Part shown: positions 2,505 through 15,316 of the stretch, piece after piece
Layout: every line of letters starts with the position of its first letter
How positions within the stretch are numbered: the stretch's first letter is position 1
Origin: Bifidobacterium breve
Lineage (GTDB): Bacteria; Actinomycetota; Thermoleophilia; Solirubrobacterales; Solirubrobacteraceae
DNA: 64,000 nucleotides
Direction of reading: 5' to 3'
NCBI GenBank assembly: GCA_945878865.1
Contig: CAMCUD010000003.1
Location: 62,001 to 126,000, forward strand
Program-made: the position numbers and the translations under genes
Notes under the pieces: model-generated
Databases searched by the model: none
The model's input: the letters and a program-made list of their open reading frames with translations, nothing else
Told to the model about the DNA's origin: nothing

Positions 2505-3191
2505 ATGCCCCGGACGTCCGTGCTGCTTGTCGACGACGAGCCGGCCCTGCGCGAGGCCGTCGGCCGTGCCCTGCGTCTGCAGGACTACGACGTCACGGCC
2601 GCCCCCGACGGGCACGGCGCGCTCGAGGCCCTCGCCGACCGGGCGTTCGACCTCGTCGTGCTCGACGTGAGCATGCCCCAGCCCGACGGCCTGGAGGTCT
2701 GCCGGCGACTGCGGTCGGTGGGCGACCGGACGCCGGTGCTCATGCTCACCGCGCGAGACGGGATCGACGACCGGGTCGCCGGGCTGGACGCCGGGGCCGA
2801 CGACTACCTCGTCAAGCCGTTCGCCCTGCGCGAGCTGCTCGCACGGCTGCGCGCCCTGCAACGCCGGACAGGGGCGGATGCGGGGCCCGCCGACGTCCTG
2901 CGCTTCGCCGACGTGCGGATGGATCGCGCCGCCTGGGAGGTCTGGCGCGGCGACCGCCAGATCGAGCTGACCCGCACGGAGTTCGCGCTGCTCGAGCTGT
3001 TTCTTCAGCATCCGCGGCAGGTCCTGACGCGCACCGCGATCTTCGAACGCGTCTGGGGCTATGACTTCGGTGCGTCCTCGAACGCGCTGGGTGTCTACGT
3101 CGGCTACCTGCGCCGCAAGCTCGAACAGGACGGCGAGCCACGGCTGCTGCACACGGTCCGCGGTGTGGGCTACGCGCTGCGCGAGGGATGA
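2505..3191 (+). CDS. OmpR-family response regulator
   Basis: DNA-binding response regulator of 228 residues. The receiver domain has acidic residues in VDDEP (10-12), phospho-acceptor D54 ([12 protein letters not shown]), a switch Thr in MLTARD and Lys in DDYLVKPF. A winged-helix domain follows ([22 protein letters not shown], then [10 protein letters not shown]). It resembles MprA/TcrA-type actinobacterial regulators. ATG 2505 follows the ATPase stop by 4 bases and the 3' end overlaps the kinase ATG (ATGA). It most likely controls the linked ABC exporter, as in other exporter and two-component neighbourhoods. Confidence 0.92.
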
Positions 3192-9286: not shown

Positions 9287-9312
9287 CAGGGACTCATAAT
9301 CACGGCTAGGTT
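9283..9312 (+). promoter_or_regulatory. sigH promoter (TTGACA-N18-TAGGTT)
   Basis: A consensus -35 TTGACA (9283-9288) overlaps the stop codon of rlmB. After an 18-base spacer comes TAGGTT (9307-9312). Transcription would begin near 9319, giving a leader of about 140 bases to the sigma gene. This is the best full -35/-10 promoter in the window. Confidence 0.65.
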
Positions 9313-9318
9313 GCCGAT

Positions 9319-9356
9319 ACTTCAGGCTGAAGTACAGCTTGAAGGTCAACCTTCAA
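9319..9356 (+). promoter_or_regulatory. Two perfect inverted repeats in the sigH leader
   Basis: ACTTCA-GGC-TGAAGT (9319-9333) and TTGAAGGT-CA-ACCTTCAA (9339-9356) lie side by side starting at the predicted transcription start. Both carry TTGAAG/CTTCAA-like half-sites. Their position just downstream of the promoter suits a repressor operator. The short 2-3 base loops make RNA hairpins less likely, especially for the second. Confidence 0.5.
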
Positions 9357-9460
9357 CCTTCGGTTTCACCAACAACGGAATACCCGTTGGCGCCCTGGGA
9401 GGGGACCGCCTCGGAGCACACACCCCGGTCCATCACGGACGGAGAAAGGGCTGCTTGCTC

Positions 9461-10111
9461 GTGGCACGACTTTCCTCACGCAAGGCGCAGGACCAGCCGC
9501 AGGTCGACGACCTGTACCTCATCGCACTCGCCAAGCAGGGCGACGCGACGGCCTACGACCGCATCGTCCGCCGCTACTACGGCTTCGTGCGCCTCAAGGC
9601 GTCGTCGTACTTCCTGGCCGGCGGCGACGCCGACGACCTCATCCAGGAGGGCCTCGTCGGGCTCTACAAGGCGGTGCGCGACTACCGCTCCGACCGCGAG
9701 TCGTCGTTCCGCAACTTCGCGGAGCTCTGCATCACGCGGCAGATCATCACGGCGGTGAAGACCGCCACGCGCAACAAGCACGCCCCGCTGAATCAGTACG
9801 TGTCGTTCTCGCAGACGCCGGCCAGCGCGCCCGAAGGCGAGCCGACGCTCGACGAGGTCATCCCCGGCCCGCGGGTCAACGACCCGGCGATCCAGGCGGT
9901 CTCCAGCGAGGAGCTCCGCGCGCTCGTCGGCTGCCTGTCCACGGCGCTCTCGGATCTCGAGTCACGCGTCCTGGCGCTCTACCTCGACGGCCGCTCCTAC
10001 GAGGAGATCGGCGGCATGATCGACTGCGACGCCAAGACCGTCGACAACGCGCTGCAGCGCGTCAAGCGCAAGGTGGGCGCGCACCTGGGCTCGCGGGCGG
10101 TGCTGAATTAG
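9461..10111 (+). CDS. sigH: Sigma-H-type RNA polymerase sigma factor
   Basis: 216-residue sigma-70 family protein close to the Bacillus Spo0H/SigH group. Region 2 reads GGDADDLIQEGLVGLYKAVRDYR, followed by the hallmark SFRNFAELCITRQIITAVKTA and RNKHAPLNQYVS. Region 4 reads LSDLESRVLALYLDGRSYEEIG, then DAKTVDNALQRVKRKV. It directs RNA polymerase to alternative, typically stationary-phase promoters. GTG 9461 follows GGAGAAAGGG; TTG 9455 is a possible alternative. It sits behind cysS-rlmB but has its own promoter and a 140-base leader with inverted repeats. Sporulation is not implied by the sequence alone. Confidence 0.92.
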   Translation: MARLSSRKAQDQPQVDDLYLIALAKQGDATAYDRIVRRYYGFVRLKASSYFLAGGDADDLIQEGLVGLYKAVRDYRSDRESSFRNFAELCITRQIITAVKTATRNKHAPLNQYVSFSQTPASAPEGEPTLDEVIPGPRVNDPAIQAVSSEELRALVGCLSTALSDLESRVLALYLDGRSYEEIGGMIDCDAKTVDNALQRVKRKVGAHLGSRAVLN

Positions 10112-10132: not shown

Positions 10133-10528
10133 ATGGCTCCCTGGCTCATCGTCGTCATCGTCCTGGTGGCGGTCCTCCTCCTGCTCGCCGTCGGCGGGCT
10201 GATCGCCACCAACCGCCGGACCCGCTCCCACGAGGGACAGCTGCTGGCCGACCTCGAGGCGGTCAACGACGCGCTCGCCGCGGCGCACGCCGCGGACAAG
10301 GGCTGGGAACCGGAGCGCCTGCGGGCCGCCGCCGAGGCGGCCTTTGCGGAGCATCACCCTGGGGTCGAGCCTGAGACCCTGACCCTCGTGCAGGTCGACG
10401 ACCGCCCGGGCATCGAGCAGGACCGGGCGATCTTCCGCGTCGTCGCGCAGGGCGCCGAGCACCAGCTCGTCCTCGGCCGCCGCGATGACGGCTGGTTCAC
10501 CGTGGAGGCGTCACCGCGCCGGCCGTGA
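10133..10528 (+). CDS. Small membrane-anchored protein, unknown function
   Basis: 131 residues. One N-terminal membrane helix (about 3-24, rich in V, I and L) is followed by a basic turn (NRRTRSHEG) and a soluble domain of about 100 residues. That domain has a helical part (GQLLADLEAVNDALAAAHAADKG) and a beta-rich end (RAIFRVVAQGAEHQLVLGRRDDGWFTVEA). I do not recognise a family. It follows sigH by 21 bases but seems to have its own start-proximal -10. Its last 32 bases overlap the convergent TetR gene. Confidence 0.65.
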   Translation: MAPWLIVVIVLVAVLLLLAVGGLIATNRRTRSHEGQLLADLEAVNDALAAAHAADKGWEPERLRAAAEAAFAEHHPGVEPETLTLVQVDDRPGIEQDRAIFRVVAQGAEHQLVLGRRDDGWFTVEASPRRP

Positions 10529-11099
10529 GGCCGGCGAAGAGCTGGAGCAGGCCCTCGTCGAGCGACTGCGCCGTCTCCGGCGCCGCGAGCTGGCGGAGGC
10601 CGAGGCCGTCCGCGAAGGCGACGAACAGGGGTGCGACGCGCTCGGGCGACGGCATCCCGATGGCCCCCAGTGTCGCCGCCACGACCTCCTCGTACGCGGC
10701 AAAGCACCGGGCGGCAGCCGCCCGCAGCGCCGGGTTGCGCCCCGCCTCGAGGTAGAGCTCGAACTGCGCGATCGTCGCGAGGTCGCCCTCGCGCAGCACC
10801 TCGGTGAAGGCCTGCGCGGCGAACCCGGGGTCGACGTCGTCCTCGGCCGCGAGCGCGTCGCTGATCGCGCGCAGGCGCGTGACCTCCTCGTCGACGTGCA
10901 GGAGCAGCGCCTGCTCGAGCAGGTCGTCCTTGCCGTCGAAGTAGTAGCTCAGCGATCCGAGCGGGACCCCGGCCTCCTTGGCGACGGCGCGGCTCGTGAC
11001 CGCGGCGATCCCGCCGCTGCGCACGAGCGCCAGCGTCGCGACGAGGATGTCGCGACGTCGTGCCTCACCTCGAGGCTGTCGCTGACGCTCAGGGCTCAT
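10497..11099 (-). CDS. TetR/AcrR-family regulator
   Basis: 200 residues. The N-terminal helix-turn-helix reads RRRDILVATLALVRSGGIAAVTSRAVAKEAGVPLGSLSYYFDGKDDLL, the classic TetR DNA-binding domain. A helical ligand domain follows. It starts 9 bases after the oxidase gene on the same strand, so the two are probably co-transcribed. Two GGAC/GTCC dyads in front of the oxidase are its likely operators, which would give autoregulation. The ligand is unknown. Confidence 0.88.
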   Translation of the reverse strand: MSPERQRQPRGEARRRDILVATLALVRSGGIAAVTSRAVAKEAGVPLGSLSYYFDGKDDLLEQALLLHVDEEVTRLRAISDALAAEDDVDPGFAAQAFTEVLREGDLATIAQFELYLEAGRNPALRAAAARCFAAYEEVVAATLGAIGMPSPERVAPLFVAFADGLGLRQLAAPETAQSLDEGLLQLFAGLTAGAVTPPR

Positions 11100-11108
11100 T
11101 CCGCAATG

Positions 11109-12398
11109 CTACGCGCCCAGCACCCGGTCGAGGTGGGCGTTGGCGAAGATCCGAGACGGATCGCACCGCTCGCGCACCTCGGCGAAGCGCTCCCACGCCG
11201 GGAACCGTGGGGCAAGTCGCTCGGCGGTCTGGAAGTGGCGCTTGCCCCAGTGGGGCCGGCCCTCGTGCTCGTCGCAGATGTGCTCGACCGCGCGGAAGTA
11301 CGGCTCCCACGACATGCCGCGGTACACGTGCACGGCGAGGTAGGCCGTGTCCCGGTCGTGGGCGGGGGAGAGGAACGCATCGTCGCCGGCGCCCACCCGC
11401 ACCTCCATCGGGAAGTTCACGGGGAACCCGGACCGCTCGATCCACGCGCGGGACCGCTCCAGCACGTCGGGCAGCGCGGCGCGCGGAAGGGCGTACTCCA
11501 TCTCCACGAACCGCACGAGGCGCGGGCTGGCGAAGATCCGGTCGCTGCGGTCCACGCGCTCGCTGCTTCCTGCGGCCTTCGTCAGGCCGCGGTTCAGCGC
11601 CGGGATGAGCCCGGGGCGGGCGCGCCCCGCGAGGCAGGCCGCCTCGAAGACGCGGTTCGTCAGCAGGATGTCGTCCACCCACGCACGCCAGGCGGGGGGC
11701 GGCGCGGCCGGGACGTCCACGCGCCGGTTCGTCCGGGTGAGCGCCGTCTCGACGTGGGGGAAGCAGAAGAACTCGAAGTGGTCGGCGCCCGCGGCGAGCT
11801 CGTCGAGACGGGCGACGGTGGTGGGCAGCGGGGCCGGCGCGTCGGTGCCCTGGAGCGTGAAGGCCTCCACGCAGCGCAGCTCGACCTCGCAGACGACACC
11901 GAGCGCGCCGAGCGAGACACGCGCCGCGCGCCACACGTCGGGCTCGTGTGCCGTCGAGCAGCGGATGACCTCGCCCGTGCCGGTGACGAGCGTCAGCGCC
12001 TCGACCATCGAGGCGAGGTTGCCGAAGGTCGCCCCGGTGCCGTGCGTGCCGGTGGCGATCGCCCCGGCGACGGTCTGGCGGTCGATGTCGCCGAGGTTCT
12101 CCAGCGCGAGTCCGTGCGCGGCGAGCGCGTCGTTGAGCTCGTGCAGCGGGATGCCCGCCTGGACGCGCGCACGCCGCCGGGCGCGATCGACCTCGAGGAC
12201 GGAGGTCATCCGGTCGAGCGACAGCAGGACGCCGTCGGTCGGGACGAGCGCGGTGAACGAGTGCCCGGAGCCGACGGGGCGCAGGGTCCCGCCGGCGGCG
12301 CGCACGCGCTGGATCTCGGCAACGACCTCGTCGACGGATGCGGGGCGCGCCACGCGCGAGGGCGCGCAGCGTTGTTCCCCTGACCAGTTCCGCCACAC
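11109..12398 (-). CDS. FAD-linked sugar-lactone/alditol oxidase (ALO family)
   Basis: 429-residue oxidoreductase of the D-arabinono-1,4-lactone/L-gulonolactone oxidase group. The N-terminal FAD (PP-loop) domain contains VGSGHSFTAL, where His is the usual covalent flavin attachment site, and a second FAD segment GAIATGTHGTGATFGNLASMV. The C-terminal ALO signature is GRPHWGKRHF, followed by DPSRIFANAHLDRVLG. I chose GTG 12398 because the conserved family start VWRNWSGEQRC begins there; upstream codons run through an operator-like palindrome. The acceptor is probably oxygen. The sugar substrate is not determinable. Confidence 0.88.
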   Translation of the reverse strand: MWRNWSGEQRCAPSRVARPASVDEVVAEIQRVRAAGGTLRPVGSGHSFTALVPTDGVLLSLDRMTSVLEVDRARRRARVQAGIPLHELNDALAAHGLALENLGDIDRQTVAGAIATGTHGTGATFGNLASMVEALTLVTGTGEVIRCSTAHEPDVWRAARVSLGALGVVCEVELRCVEAFTLQGTDAPAPLPTTVARLDELAAGADHFEFFCFPHVETALTRTNRRVDVPAAPPPAWRAWVDDILLTNRVFEAACLAGRARPGLIPALNRGLTKAAGSSERVDRSDRIFASPRLVRFVEMEYALPRAALPDVLERSRAWIERSGFPVNFPMEVRVGAGDDAFLSPAHDRDTAYLAVHVYRGMSWEPYFRAVEHICDEHEGRPHWGKRHFQTAERLAPRFPAWERFAEVRERCDPSRIFANAHLDRVLGA

Positions 12399-12419
12399 GC
12401 CCTGAGCATGCCGAAAAGC

Positions 12420-12471
12420 TGGACGCCTGTCCAATATGTCTGCCGCGTGCGGTAGAAGTTGGACGTCCGAC
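12420..12471. promoter_or_regulatory. Paired GGAC/GTCC operator-like dyads
   Basis: TGGAC-GCCT-GTCCA (12420-12433) and GTTGGACGTCCGAC (12458-12471, core GGACGTCC) lie between the divergent oxidase and multicopper oxidase genes. They share the GGAC/GTCC half-site with spacers of 4 and 0. The TetR gene co-transcribed with the oxidase is the natural candidate to bind them. Confidence 0.5.
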
Positions 12472-12490
12472 CTACTTTGCCGCTACTTTG
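12472..12490 (+). repeat. Tandem CTACTTTG repeat, 11-base phase
   Basis: CTACTTTG occurs at 12472-12479 and again at 12483-12490, one helical turn apart, about 40-60 bases before the multicopper oxidase start. Each contains TACTTT, a TANNNT -10-like hexamer. It could be a pair of activator half-sites or two alternative -10 elements. Confidence 0.4.
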
Positions 12491-12531
12491 AGCGAACGGC
12501 CGTGTTCATGCAGGCCGGAGAGATCACTGCC

Positions 12532-13593
12532 ATGGCCAATCGCATCGACCGCCGCTCGTTCCTGGGCGCCTCCGCCGGCGCAGCCCTGCTGTGCACCATC
12601 GGCGGCACCACCTACCAAGTCAACGACGCGGCCGACCTCGCGCAGGTCGATGCTGCCGCGGCGAAGCTCAAGCGCCCGGCGCCCAAGGCGCGCGCGGCGG
12701 CCGAGCTCACGGGCTTTCCCACCCCGACGCCCGCCGAGGGCGGCCAGGTGCGCGAGTACTGGATCCAGGCCCGCACGCGGTGGTGGGACATCATGCCTCA
12801 TAAGCGCGACGACTGGCACGACGTCCCGATCCGGGGCAAGTCGACGTACCGCGCCTTCGTCTACCAGGAGATGACGCCCGGGTTCGCGGCCCCGAAGGGC
12901 CCGCCGTCGATCCCCGGCCCGATCCTCAAGTGCGAGGTCGGCGACCTGCTCGTCGTGCACTTCCGCAACGCCGACCGCGTGCTCGAGCAGGCGATCACGA
13001 TGCACCCCCACGGCGTGAAGTACAACCCCGAGTACGACGGGGCGTTCATGGGGGCGTACACCCGCACGGGCGGATTCGTCGAGCCCGGCGAGGAGTTCAC
13101 CTACCGGTGGGAGGCCACGCCCGACAGCGTGGGCGTCTGGCCGTACCACGACCACGGGCCCAACCACACGGTCAACACGATGCGCGGCCTGTTCGGCGCG
13201 ATCATCGTCTACCCCAAGGGCGCGAAGATCCCCGACGTCGAGCGCGTCCTGTTCCTCCACGCGCTCACGCCGCCCATCACCGGCCTGCCGACCGCGCGCC
13301 AGTGCATCAACGGCCGCGCGTTCGCCGGCAACACGCCGACCATCCAGGCGAAGGTCGGCCAGGACGTCGCCCTGCACGTCATCGGGATGGACGACGCGTT
13401 CCACGACTTCCACATCCACGGCCATCGCTGGAAGGACGCCAGCGGCACCTACGTGGACACCCCCGCGGTGGGCCCCAACGAGACCATCACCGCCCGCTTC
13501 ACCGAGGACAACCCGGGCCGCTGGCTCTACCACTGCCACGTCTTCTCCCACCAGGACGGTGGGATGGCGGGGTGGTACGTGGTGGACCGGTGA
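12532..13593 (+). CDS. Exported multicopper oxidase (laccase-like)
   Basis: 353 residues. A twin-arginine leader (DRRSFLGASAG, R7-R8) predicts export of a folded, copper-loaded protein. All four copper motifs are present: HPHG (H158, H160), HDH (H206, H208), HIHGH (294-298) and HCHVFSHQDGGM (334-345), with Met345 as type-1 axial ligand. The short length suggests a two-domain or otherwise compact enzyme. It would oxidise a metal or phenolic substrate with oxygen. ATG 12532 has a GGAG about 11 bases upstream; ATG 12508 in frame is possible. The stop overlaps the GTG of the longer beta-helix frame, and the cupredoxin follows in the same operon. Confidence 0.9.
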   Translation: MANRIDRRSFLGASAGAALLCTIGGTTYQVNDAADLAQVDAAAAKLKRPAPKARAAAELTGFPTPTPAEGGQVREYWIQARTRWWDIMPHKRDDWHDVPIRGKSTYRAFVYQEMTPGFAAPKGPPSIPGPILKCEVGDLLVVHFRNADRVLEQAITMHPHGVKYNPEYDGAFMGAYTRTGGFVEPGEEFTYRWEATPDSVGVWPYHDHGPNHTVNTMRGLFGAIIVYPKGAKIPDVERVLFLHALTPPITGLPTARQCINGRAFAGNTPTIQAKVGQDVALHVIGMDDAFHDFHIHGHRWKDASGTYVDTPAVGPNETITARFTEDNPGRWLYHCHVFSHQDGGMAGWYVVDR

Positions 13594-13619
13594 GCCGCAC
13601 CACCGAGAGAAGGAGTCCC

Positions 13620-14951
13620 GTGCTCCGTCGCACCACCACCATCGCCGCGGTCGCCACCGCGGCGGCCGTTCTGGCTCCGTCCGTCGCCCAGGCGGTCGAC
13701 TACCCCCCGCCGACCAACCCGAAGGCCACGGTCGGCAAGCCGAAGGGGCCGTTCAAGACCCTGAAGGTCAACAAGAAGAAGGGCCCGTACAAGACGATCC
13801 AGGCCGCGGTCGACGCCGCCGGTCCGGGCGACACCATTCGCATCGCGGACGGCACGTACAACGAGGGCGTCCAGATCAAGGGCAGCGGCAAGCGCTACCT
13901 CAAGGTCATCGGCAACCCGGCGCATCCCGAGCGCGTCGTGCTCGAGGGCAAGGGCGTCAAGGGCATCAAGGCCCAGAACGGCATCCAGGTCAACGGGGCC
14001 AACGAGGTCGGCCTCCAGGGCCTGAAGGCGCAGAACTTCAAGGCCAACGGCTTCTTCGTCGTCAACAACGTCGGCTACACGTTCGACCGTCTCGTCGCCG
14101 AGCGCGACGGCGTGTACGGCATCTACGCCTTCAACACGAAGGGCGGCACGATGAAGAACAGCGTCGCCTACTACCACAACGACGCGGGCTTCTACATCGG
14201 CCAGACGCCGCCGCAGACCAAGCCGATCCGCTCGATCGTCACGAACGTGCAGAGCTGGGGCAACGTCCTGGGCTTCTCCGGCACGAACATGAAGTACGTG
14301 ACGATCACGAAGTCGAAGTGGTTCAACAACGGCACGGGCATCGTCCCGAACGCGCTGGACTCCGAGAAGTTCGCGCCGCCGGAGGACAATGTCATCACCG
14401 ACAACGACATCTTCTGGAACAACTTCGACTACAAGGCGGGCAACGCGCCGTTCGTCCTGCGCAAGACGGCCGTCGGCTCGATCCCGTACCCGATCGGCGT
14501 CGGCGTCCTCGTGTTCGGCGGCCGCCGGCACCTCGTCTCGAACAACCGCATCTACGGCAACTACCTCGTCGGCGCGGGCATGCTCCAGCAGCTGCTGCTC
14601 AAGGACAAGAGCGCCCAGGACCTGATCGGCAATCAGATCAAGGACAACGCGTTCGGCAAGAACGGCACGGACATCAACGGCCGTGAGCTGTTCTACGACG
14701 GCAACGGCAGCGACAACTGCATCTCCGGCAACACCGGGGTGCAGCTGACGATGCCGGCGGATCAGTCGACGTTCGCGCCGTGCCCGTTCACGGGCGCCAA
14801 CGCGTTCAGCTCGGCCACGCAGAACGAGGCCATCGGCTGGGTCGGCAGCCCGACCGGCCAGTGGATCAAGCACCCGCACGCGCCGATCCCCGGTCTCGAT
14901 CCGCTCGAGACGTTCAGCAAGAGCGGGAAGTACGGGCCGAAGACCGCATGA
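13620..14951 (+). CDS. Secreted right-handed beta-helix protein
   Basis: 443 residues. A signal peptide (LRRTTTIAAVATAAAVLAPSVAQA) is followed by a Lys/Pro-rich linker. The typical beta-helix opening is GPYKTIQAAVDAAGPGDTIRIADGTYNEGV, with many short turns after it (for example VNNVGYTFDRLVAERDGVYGIYAF, NNRIYGNYLVGAG, GSDNCISGNTG). Such folds are found in polysaccharide lyases, carbohydrate-binding and NosD-like copper-related proteins. No catalytic residues stand out. GTG 13620 has AAGGAG just upstream; an upstream GTG (13590) overlaps the oxidase stop. Its place between a copper oxidase and a cupredoxin suggests a shared extracellular role. Confidence 0.82.
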   Translation: MLRRTTTIAAVATAAAVLAPSVAQAVDYPPPTNPKATVGKPKGPFKTLKVNKKKGPYKTIQAAVDAAGPGDTIRIADGTYNEGVQIKGSGKRYLKVIGNPAHPERVVLEGKGVKGIKAQNGIQVNGANEVGLQGLKAQNFKANGFFVVNNVGYTFDRLVAERDGVYGIYAFNTKGGTMKNSVAYYHNDAGFYIGQTPPQTKPIRSIVTNVQSWGNVLGFSGTNMKYVTITKSKWFNNGTGIVPNALDSEKFAPPEDNVITDNDIFWNNFDYKAGNAPFVLRKTAVGSIPYPIGVGVLVFGGRRHLVSNNRIYGNYLVGAGMLQQLLLKDKSAQDLIGNQIKDNAFGKNGTDINGRELFYDGNGSDNCISGNTGVQLTMPADQSTFAPCPFTGANAFSSATQNEAIGWVGSPTGQWIKHPHAPIPGLDPLETFSKSGKYGPKTA

Positions 14952-15316
14952 GCCGTTCGCGCCTGACGATCATCGCCGTCGCGGGCCTCGCCGCCGCCTC
15001 CGTCGCCGCTGTGCCGGCGGCGGCGGGCGGGGGCAAGCCCCAGAAGAAGACGGTGAAGATCGGCGACAACTACTACAGCCCGTCGAAGCTCACGGTGAAC
15101 AAGGGCTCGACGGTCACGTGGAAGTGGCCGGACACGACCGGCGACACGCACGACGTGACGCTGAAGTCCGGTCCCAAGGGCGTGAAGAAGTTCGCCTCCG
15201 AGCAGGCCGGGTCGTTCTACTCGTACAAGCAGAAGCTTGCGAAGCCCGGCACCTACAAGATCATCTGCACCCTGCACGAGCAGGAGATGAAGATGACCAT
15301 CACGGTGCGCAAGTAG
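14948..15316 (+). CDS. Exported cupredoxin (plastocyanin-like)
   Basis: 122 residues. A signal peptide ending VPAAAGGG is followed by a single cupredoxin domain (IGDNYYSPSKLTVNKGSTVTWKW). The likely type-1 copper ligands are His in THDV, then Cys, His and Met in IICTLHEQEM, in the correct order and spacing (C-x2-H-x3-M). ATG overlaps the beta-helix stop (ATGA). As the last gene of the copper module it is the natural electron carrier or copper donor for the oxidase outside the membrane. Confidence 0.92.
   Translation: MSRSRLTIIAVAGLAAASVAAVPAAAGGGKPQKKTVKIGDNYYSPSKLTVNKGSTVTWKWPDTTGDTHDVTLKSGPKGVKKFASEQAGSFYSYKQKLAKPGTYKIICTLHEQEMKMTITVRK

What the first reader, a model, noticed from the sequence alone, without database searches (positions are those of the whole stretch)
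12420..12490. Divergent oxidase/copper-module control region with two dyads and a phased direct repeat
Within 71 bases there are two GGAC/GTCC inverted repeats and a tandem CTACTTTG repeat exactly 11 bases apart. A TetR gene is co-transcribed with the flavin oxidase on one side. The arrangement suggests that one TetR regulator links the sugar-lactone oxidase with the secreted copper proteins, while a second factor or tandem -10s act at CTACTTTG.
Basis: partly seen in the sequence, partly recalled or inferred. Interest (0 to 1): 0.5.

Follow-up and report, generated by a model that had tools for sequence, protein, structure and literature searches.

The report
Twin TetR operators between divergent operons
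A short stretch of DNA between two oppositely pointing gene sets carries two copies of what is very probably the docking site of a TetR-type repressor, one over each promoter, so one regulator probably switches both sets together; the arrangement is ordinary in kind but well supported by comparison across species.

Summary
Confirmed with corrections. The 133-bp gap between a FAD-linked oxidase gene (minus strand, tetR 9 nt behind it) and a two-domain multicopper oxidase (MCO)/beta-helix/cupredoxin set (plus strand) holds two sites of one 16-bp form, TTGGAC-N4-GTCCAA: O1 12419-12434 (11/12) and O2 12459-12474 (10/12). Across own genome and two congeners 22 of 24 half-site bases are invariant, against 1 of 8 spacer bases and 29 of 71 other ungapped bases of the gap. 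Outside the genus, 24 of 25 MCO loci with a divergent TetR upstream hold a GGAC-N4-GTYC or GTAC-N4-GTAC dyad; without an adjacent TetR, 1 of 29 near homologues do. A TAnnnT -10 follows at 17-20 nt in 15 of 24; in the window this is the second CTACTTTG copy, so 'second factor or tandem -10s' is not supported. Best reading: paired TetR operators over the -35 of each divergent promoter, with TetR probably autoregulated. Which TetR binds, and the inducer, are not shown: a paralogue has the same operator word. New member of a known kind.

The parts
12419..12434 (.). Operator O1, CTGGACGCCTGTCCAA (reverse strand TTGGACAGGCGTCCAG), 11/12 to TTGGACN4GTCCAA; covers the -35 of the leftward oxidase-tetR promoter
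12459..12474 (.). Operator O2, TTGGACGTCCGACCTA, 10/12; covers the -35 and upstream spacer of the rightward MCO promoter
12484..12489 (+). Probable -10 element TACTTT of the MCO promoter (inside the second CTACTTTG), 19 nt after TTGGAC or 18 nt after TGGACG
   Evidence: spacing shared with relatives
12472..12479 (+). First CTACTTTG copy: shares 12472-12474 with O2's right arm and lies in the promoter spacer; 7 of 8 bases invariant in three genomes
12405..12410 (-). -10-like CATGCT (CATACT in both congeners), 18-19 nt after TTGGAC and 6 nt before the oxidase start codon I chose, in 3 of 3 genomes: possible leaderless mRNA
   Evidence: read by eye; leaderless rule from passages of PMC3160421 and PMC3898074
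11109..12398 (-). FAD-linked oxidase (PF01565 + PF04030; above cut-off of TIGR01679). GTG start chosen by me from the reach of the homologue alignments; the longest open frame begins at TTG 12434
10497..11099 (-). TetR-family regulator (PF00440 + PF17940), 9 nt downstream of the oxidase
12532..13593 (+). Two-domain multicopper oxidase (PF07732 + PF07731) with a twin-arginine-like signal (by eye)
13590..14951 (+). Right-handed beta-helix protein with a signal-like N-terminus (by eye), overlaps the MCO stop by 4 nt
14948..15316 (+). Cupredoxin-like protein, overlaps the previous stop by 4 nt

Best explanation
O1 and O2 are two operators for a TetR-family repressor of the PF17940 group, most likely the one encoded at 10497-11099. 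A dimer on the 16-bp site TTGGAC-N4-GTCCAA covers the -35 element and upstream spacer of the promoter. O2 would block the MCO/beta-helix/cupredoxin promoter (-10 TACTTT 12484-12489), and O1 would block the oxidase-tetR promoter, giving autoregulation. A ligand would release the repressor and induce both operons together. Compared with relatives, which have TetR<-[one dyad or two]->MCO, the window's genus has the oxidase gene between tetR and the control region and one operator for each promoter. Shown: the genes, the dyads, their conservation, their association with a neighbouring TetR, and the promoter-like spacing. Inferred: binding, repression, autoregulation, induction, and which TetR binds.
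For: Footprint in own genome, G001 (Svornostia abyssi J379 by L099) and G002: half-site bases 22 of 24 invariant, spacers 1 of 8, the other bases of the gap 29 of 101, or 29 of 71 if columns with an alignment gap are left out. Outside the genus, 24 of 24 distinct MCO loci with a divergent TetR in the first set carry GGAC-N4-GTYC (12) or GTAC-N4-GTAC (12); 200 shuffles of the same gaps average 0.4 of 24, maximum 3; the strict dyad with spacer 4 occurs in 23 of 24, with every other spacer from 0 to 12 in at most 6. A locus fetched later, L192, lacks it in its 569-nt gap: 24 of 25 in all. Without an adjacent divergent TetR: 1 of 24 near homologues, then 0 of 5 more, and 0 of 17 distant ones; the one exception, G032 (L154), has a related TetR on another contig with a matching dyad starting 64 nt upstream of the TetR match. 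TAnnnT lies 17-20 nt after the first half-site in 15 of 24 linked loci, including 12 of 12 of GGAC type; about 2.2 of 24 loci would show one in the wider window searched (14-21 nt) at a random place of the same gaps. In the window and both congeners the hexamer is at 19 nt. tetR lies 9 nt behind the oxidase and next to it in G001.
Against: No binding or expression data. In the TetR tree the window-genus clade lies in an unresolved fork with MCO-linked L043 and L053 (joined by L047), L042, L049 and a clade of 13 TetRs without MCO, and the 24 MCO-linked TetRs are not one clade. L043 and L053 go with a TTGTAC-type dyad, not TTGGAC. A paralogue (own contig C20) has a perfect TTGGACACTTGTCCAA upstream and could also bind here. 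O2's right half, GACCTA, is an imperfect arm; O1 in G002 is weak (9 of 12). 9 of 24 linked loci, all of GTAC type, have no TAnnnT at the expected place. Genome G030 has a related TetR with TTGGACGTTTGTCCAG upstream (L054) while its MCO homologue (53% identical) has no dyad in 300 bp upstream (L191). Sites within 2 mismatches are hardly enriched genome-wide in the congeners (37 against 37 and 41 against 39 for the reversed pattern; own 46 against 27). In G002 the oxidase and tetR lie at the ends of two contigs, so their adjacency there is unknown.
Confidence: 0.78

Rival explanations
1. The sites are TetR operators, but the main binder is another TetR of the genome, such as the C20 paralogue beside a flavin monoamine oxidase; the local TetR may act elsewhere or share the sites.
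For: Perfect TTGGAC-N4-GTCCAA beside the C20 paralogue and beside its counterparts in G001 and G002, each 20 nt before the predicted amine-oxidase start, the same gap as O1 to the oxidase start I chose; the window TetR is not in a purely MCO-linked clade.
Against: A TetR beside the dyad-bearing gap is the pattern in the 24 linked loci; tetR stays behind the oxidase in own genome and G001.
Confidence: 0.15
2. TTGGAC(A) is only a -35 element that happens to be conserved on both sides; the inverted arms are accidental.
For: TTGGAC is the invariant half on both sides and sits at -35 spacing in both directions.
Against: The right half of O2 is invariant in 6 of 6 bases and the distal half of O1 in 4 of 6, while spacers change (1 of 8); 24 of 25 TetR-linked relatives have both arms at spacer 4, GTAC-type dyads among them.
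Confidence: 0.05
3. The CTACTTTG tandem repeat is the site of a second regulator, or a pair of tandem -10s.
For: The exact repeat at 11 nt is real and the first copy is conserved in 7 of 8 bases.
Against: The repeat is exact in only 2 of 3 congeners; the second copy is at the -10 spacing seen in relatives; by eye no TTG-type -35 lies 16-19 nt upstream of the first copy. The simple sigma-70 scan found no promoter-like site at all in this region, so it favours neither copy.
Confidence: 0.05

Closest known systems
Classical divergent TetR operator/promoter arrangement (tetR/tetA, AcrR, KstR type; recalled)
   Same: Short inverted repeat over the promoter, regulator gene near its target, probable autoregulation
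   Different: Two operators, one per promoter; their distance varies between species (40, 42 and 52 bp), so no fixed phasing; a metabolic gene lies between regulator and operators
TetR proteins of known structure: EbrA repressor 3hta and RcdA 7aco/7acl
   Same: Among the best sequence matches to solved chains
   Different: E-values only about 1e-14 to 3e-13; no evidence of shared operator or ligand
Two-domain (small) laccases, e.g. 3t9w and 8aip
   Same: The MCO at 12532-13593 aligns over most of both cupredoxin domains
   Different: Set in a gene series with a beta-helix protein and a separate cupredoxin; the top hits are venom factor V-like, ceruloplasmin and factor V chains
MCO-TetR divergent pairs of Solirubrobacter, Conexibacter and relatives
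   Same: Same MCO family, related TetR, same N4 dyad architecture
   Different: No oxidase gene between; one dyad, or two (23 bp apart in six loci); GTAC instead of GGAC core in 12 of 24

Membership tests
TetR family regulator (gene 10497-11099) | N-terminal TetR_N helix-turn-helix above Pfam gathering score | tested here: met
   PF00440 44 bits against 24; PF17940 70.9 against 27.4
TetR operator (O1, O2) | Inverted repeat overlapping the promoter and conserved with the regulator | tested here: met
   the promoter itself is predicted, not mapped
TetR operator (O1, O2) | Bound by the TetR protein | not testable with these tools
   needs EMSA or footprinting
Sugar 1,4-lactone oxidase (TIGR01678) | Score above the curated cut-off | tested here: not met
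   271.3 against 396.8 bits; it does pass TIGR01679 FAD-linked oxidoreductase, 438.3 against 292.25, and PF04030, 253.3 against 23.1
Two-domain multicopper oxidase | Both Cu-oxidase_3 and Cu-oxidase_2 above gathering score | tested here: met
   74.3 against 21 and 73 against 20.4 bits; HxH motifs and HCH-x3-H seen in the translation
Leaderless transcript (oxidase) | TAnnnT -10 about 12 nt upstream of the start codon | tested here: inconclusive
   First base of the hexamer 12 nt upstream in 3 of 3, but the hexamer is CATRCT, not TAnnnT; rule from passages of PMC3160421

The most novel reading that the evidence does not exclude
A TetR lineage in Solirubrobacterales has kept one operator architecture (NNGNAC-N4-GTNCNN) at a secreted copper-oxidase operon while its core switched between GGAC and GTAC. 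In the window's genus a FAD oxidase gene lies between repressor and operators, with one operator per promoter, making a bidirectional switch that couples a flavin oxidase with extracellular copper oxidation and shares its operator word with a paralogous TetR/amine-oxidase switch (possible cross-talk).
Probability: 0.35. Interest if true: 0.5.

Novelty: new member of a known kind. Interest (0 to 1): 0.35.

Why it matters
It gives a concrete, testable operator for a TetR group whose targets I did not find described, predicts joint control of a flavin oxidase and a laccase-like copper module in a little-studied order, and offers a natural series (GGAC against GTAC dyads with their neighbouring TetRs) for studying how TetR specificity changes. 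In the listings of my literature searches I saw no paper on this operator; two searches returned mostly unrelated papers and searches were cut to 15 rows, so this is weak evidence of absence.

Tried and rejected
Rejected: the GGACGTCC register of the second dyad (not conserved); tandem -10s or a second factor at CTACTTTG; a consensus sigma-70 promoter (none found by the simple scan); a regulon read from all sites within 2 mismatches (reversed-pattern controls nearly as many in the congeners; in 9 of the 25 site regions looked at the site falls inside a frame called by my crude gene finder). The loose pattern GGACN{4,20}GTCC is useless as a test (2681 matches per strand, 2108 for the reversed control). 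HTH residues of the TetRs were compared by eye with the operator core: no clean residue code, and kinship confounds it. A larger set was sought by searching the family (146 genomes); its 51 MCO genomes were all already. Four of the extra loci then taken (L185-L188) repeat genomes or records already counted, so the only later cases are L192 (linked, no dyad) and L189, L190, L191, L193, L194 (no adjacent divergent TetR, no dyad in 300 bp). Rows dropped before the counts: MCO loci sharing the first 150 matched residues were merged (70 distinct left); L078 and L157 have no upstream sequence and left the unlinked count; L069-L071 are the window genus and were counted apart. itself prints those three under 'unlinked'. 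The GGAC/GTAC pattern was fixed after reading the gaps, so 24 of 24 is descriptive; the spacer comparison and the loci without TetR are the controls. The pattern used for linked, unlinked and shuffled gaps also allowed GAAC-N4-GTCC.

Full report
What is there. The window is part of a 4.96-Mb assembly of 79 contigs. Minus strand: tetR 10497-11099, and 9 nt upstream of it the FAD-linked oxidase 11109-12398; I chose its GTG start from the reach of the homologue alignments. Plus strand: MCO 12532-13593, beta-helix 13590-14951 and cupredoxin 14948-15316, with 4-nt overlaps. The gap 12399-12531 is the control region. One congener, G001, corresponds to the Svornostia abyssi J379 chromosome: L099 (CP088295.1) matches the MCO at 87% identity at nearly the same position (the recorded contig lengths differ by 100 bases).

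The dyads. Aligned with the two congeners, both sites fall in one register, TTGGAC-N4-GTCCAA. O1 on the minus strand: TTGGACAGGCGTCCAG (own), TTGGACACGTGTCCCG (G001), TTGGACGCCTGTACGG (G002). O2 on the plus strand: TTGGACGTCCGACCTA, TTGGACATCCGACCTA, TTGGACAGACGACCTA. Invariant bases: half-sites 22 of 24, spacers 1 of 8, the rest of the gap 29 of 101, or 29 of 71 without columns that hold an alignment gap. The distance from O1 to O2 differs (40, 42 and 52 bp), so they look like two independent operators, not a phased pair.

The comparative test. The oxidase has homologues in 82 of 151 genomes at E up to 1e-60. Of the 30 loci returned, 3 are the window genus, all with the MCO beside it, and 0 of the other 27 have a match to the window's TetR, MCO, beta-helix or cupredoxin in the fetched flanks. 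The MCO has homologues in 108 of 299 genomes at E up to 1e-40. Among 70 distinct MCO loci, 24 outside the genus have a related TetR divergently upstream, without the oxidase between; all 24 carry GGAC-N4-GTYC (12) or GTAC-N4-GTAC (12) in the gap. In 200 dinucleotide-preserving shuffles the average is 0.4 of 24 and the maximum 3; the strict dyad with spacer 4 occurs in 23 of 24, with any other spacer from 0 to 12 in at most 6. Without an adjacent divergent TetR, 1 of 24 near homologues and 0 of 17 distant ones have the dyad, and 0 of 5 loci taken later. The one exception, G032, has a related TetR on another contig with a matching dyad starting 64 nt upstream of its match. A linked locus fetched later, L192, has a TetR 570 nt upstream and no dyad in the gap, so the fair count is 24 of 25. 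Against the simple rule, G030 has a dyad upstream of its TetR (L054) but none upstream of its MCO homologue (L191). The loci are related and the pattern was fixed after reading them, so these counts are not independent trials.

The promoters. In the linked loci a TAnnnT hexamer follows the first half-site after 17-20 nt in 15 of 24, among them all 12 of GGAC type; the other 9 are of GTAC type and have none. At random places of the same gaps about 2.2 of 24 would show one in the window searched, 14-21 nt. In the window the hexamer is TACTTT 12484-12489, spacer 19 (18 if the -35 is read as TGGACG), also at 19 in G001 and G002. This is the second CTACTTTG; the first overlaps the right arm of O2. 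The 11-nt direct repeat is real but exact in only 2 of 3 congeners. On the other side CATGCT (CATACT in both congeners) lies 18-19 nt after TTGGAC and 6 nt before the oxidase start codon in 3 of 3 (by eye), close to the layout described for leaderless genes in Actinobacteria (passages of PMC3160421, and PMC3898074), though without the first T of TAnnnT. The simple promoter scan found nothing in the region.

Which TetR. The window-genus TetRs form one clade (100/100) in an unresolved fork with MCO-linked and other TetRs; the 24 MCO-linked TetRs fall in several places of the tree. The own genome also has a paralogue on contig C20, divergent from a flavin monoamine oxidase (named by eye from its translation), with a perfect TTGGACACTTGTCCAA 20 nt before the predicted start of that gene; G001 and G002 have perfect sites at the matching place. 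The operator word is therefore shared within this TetR group and cross-binding is possible. Linkage favours the local TetR. The inducer is unknown.

Mechanism. Most likely steric repression: a TetR dimer on O2 excludes RNA polymerase from the MCO promoter and a dimer on O1 from the oxidase-tetR promoter. The finding is a good example of a known kind of control region, not a new kind.

Noticed in passing
L145 (own contig C20:32000-38000), site 2672-2687: A paralogous TetR divergent from a flavin monoamine oxidase-like gene with a perfect TTGGACACTTGTCCAA; perfect sites sit at the matching place in G001 (L177) and G002 (L179).
   Followed up: partly
L084, L111, L113, L115, L123, L160 (Solirubrobacter and relatives): Two GTAC-type dyads 23 bp apart between TetR and MCO.
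   Followed up: partly
L153 and L154 (genome G032): MCO and a related TetR lie on different contigs, yet both have a GTAC-type dyad upstream.
   Followed up: partly
L173 site 2388 (G001) and L178 site 2137 (G002): An identical perfect site TTGGACGCAAGTCCAA in both congeners before a gene starting MTDF; not among the own genome's listed sites.
   Followed up: no
L146 site 2996-3011 (own contig C12): A perfect TTGGACAGTCGTCCAA 12 nt before a gene with a signal-like N-terminus; could be chance.
   Followed up: no
window 9311-10111: A sigma-70-type factor gene (PF04542, PF08281) near the tetR operon.
   Followed up: no
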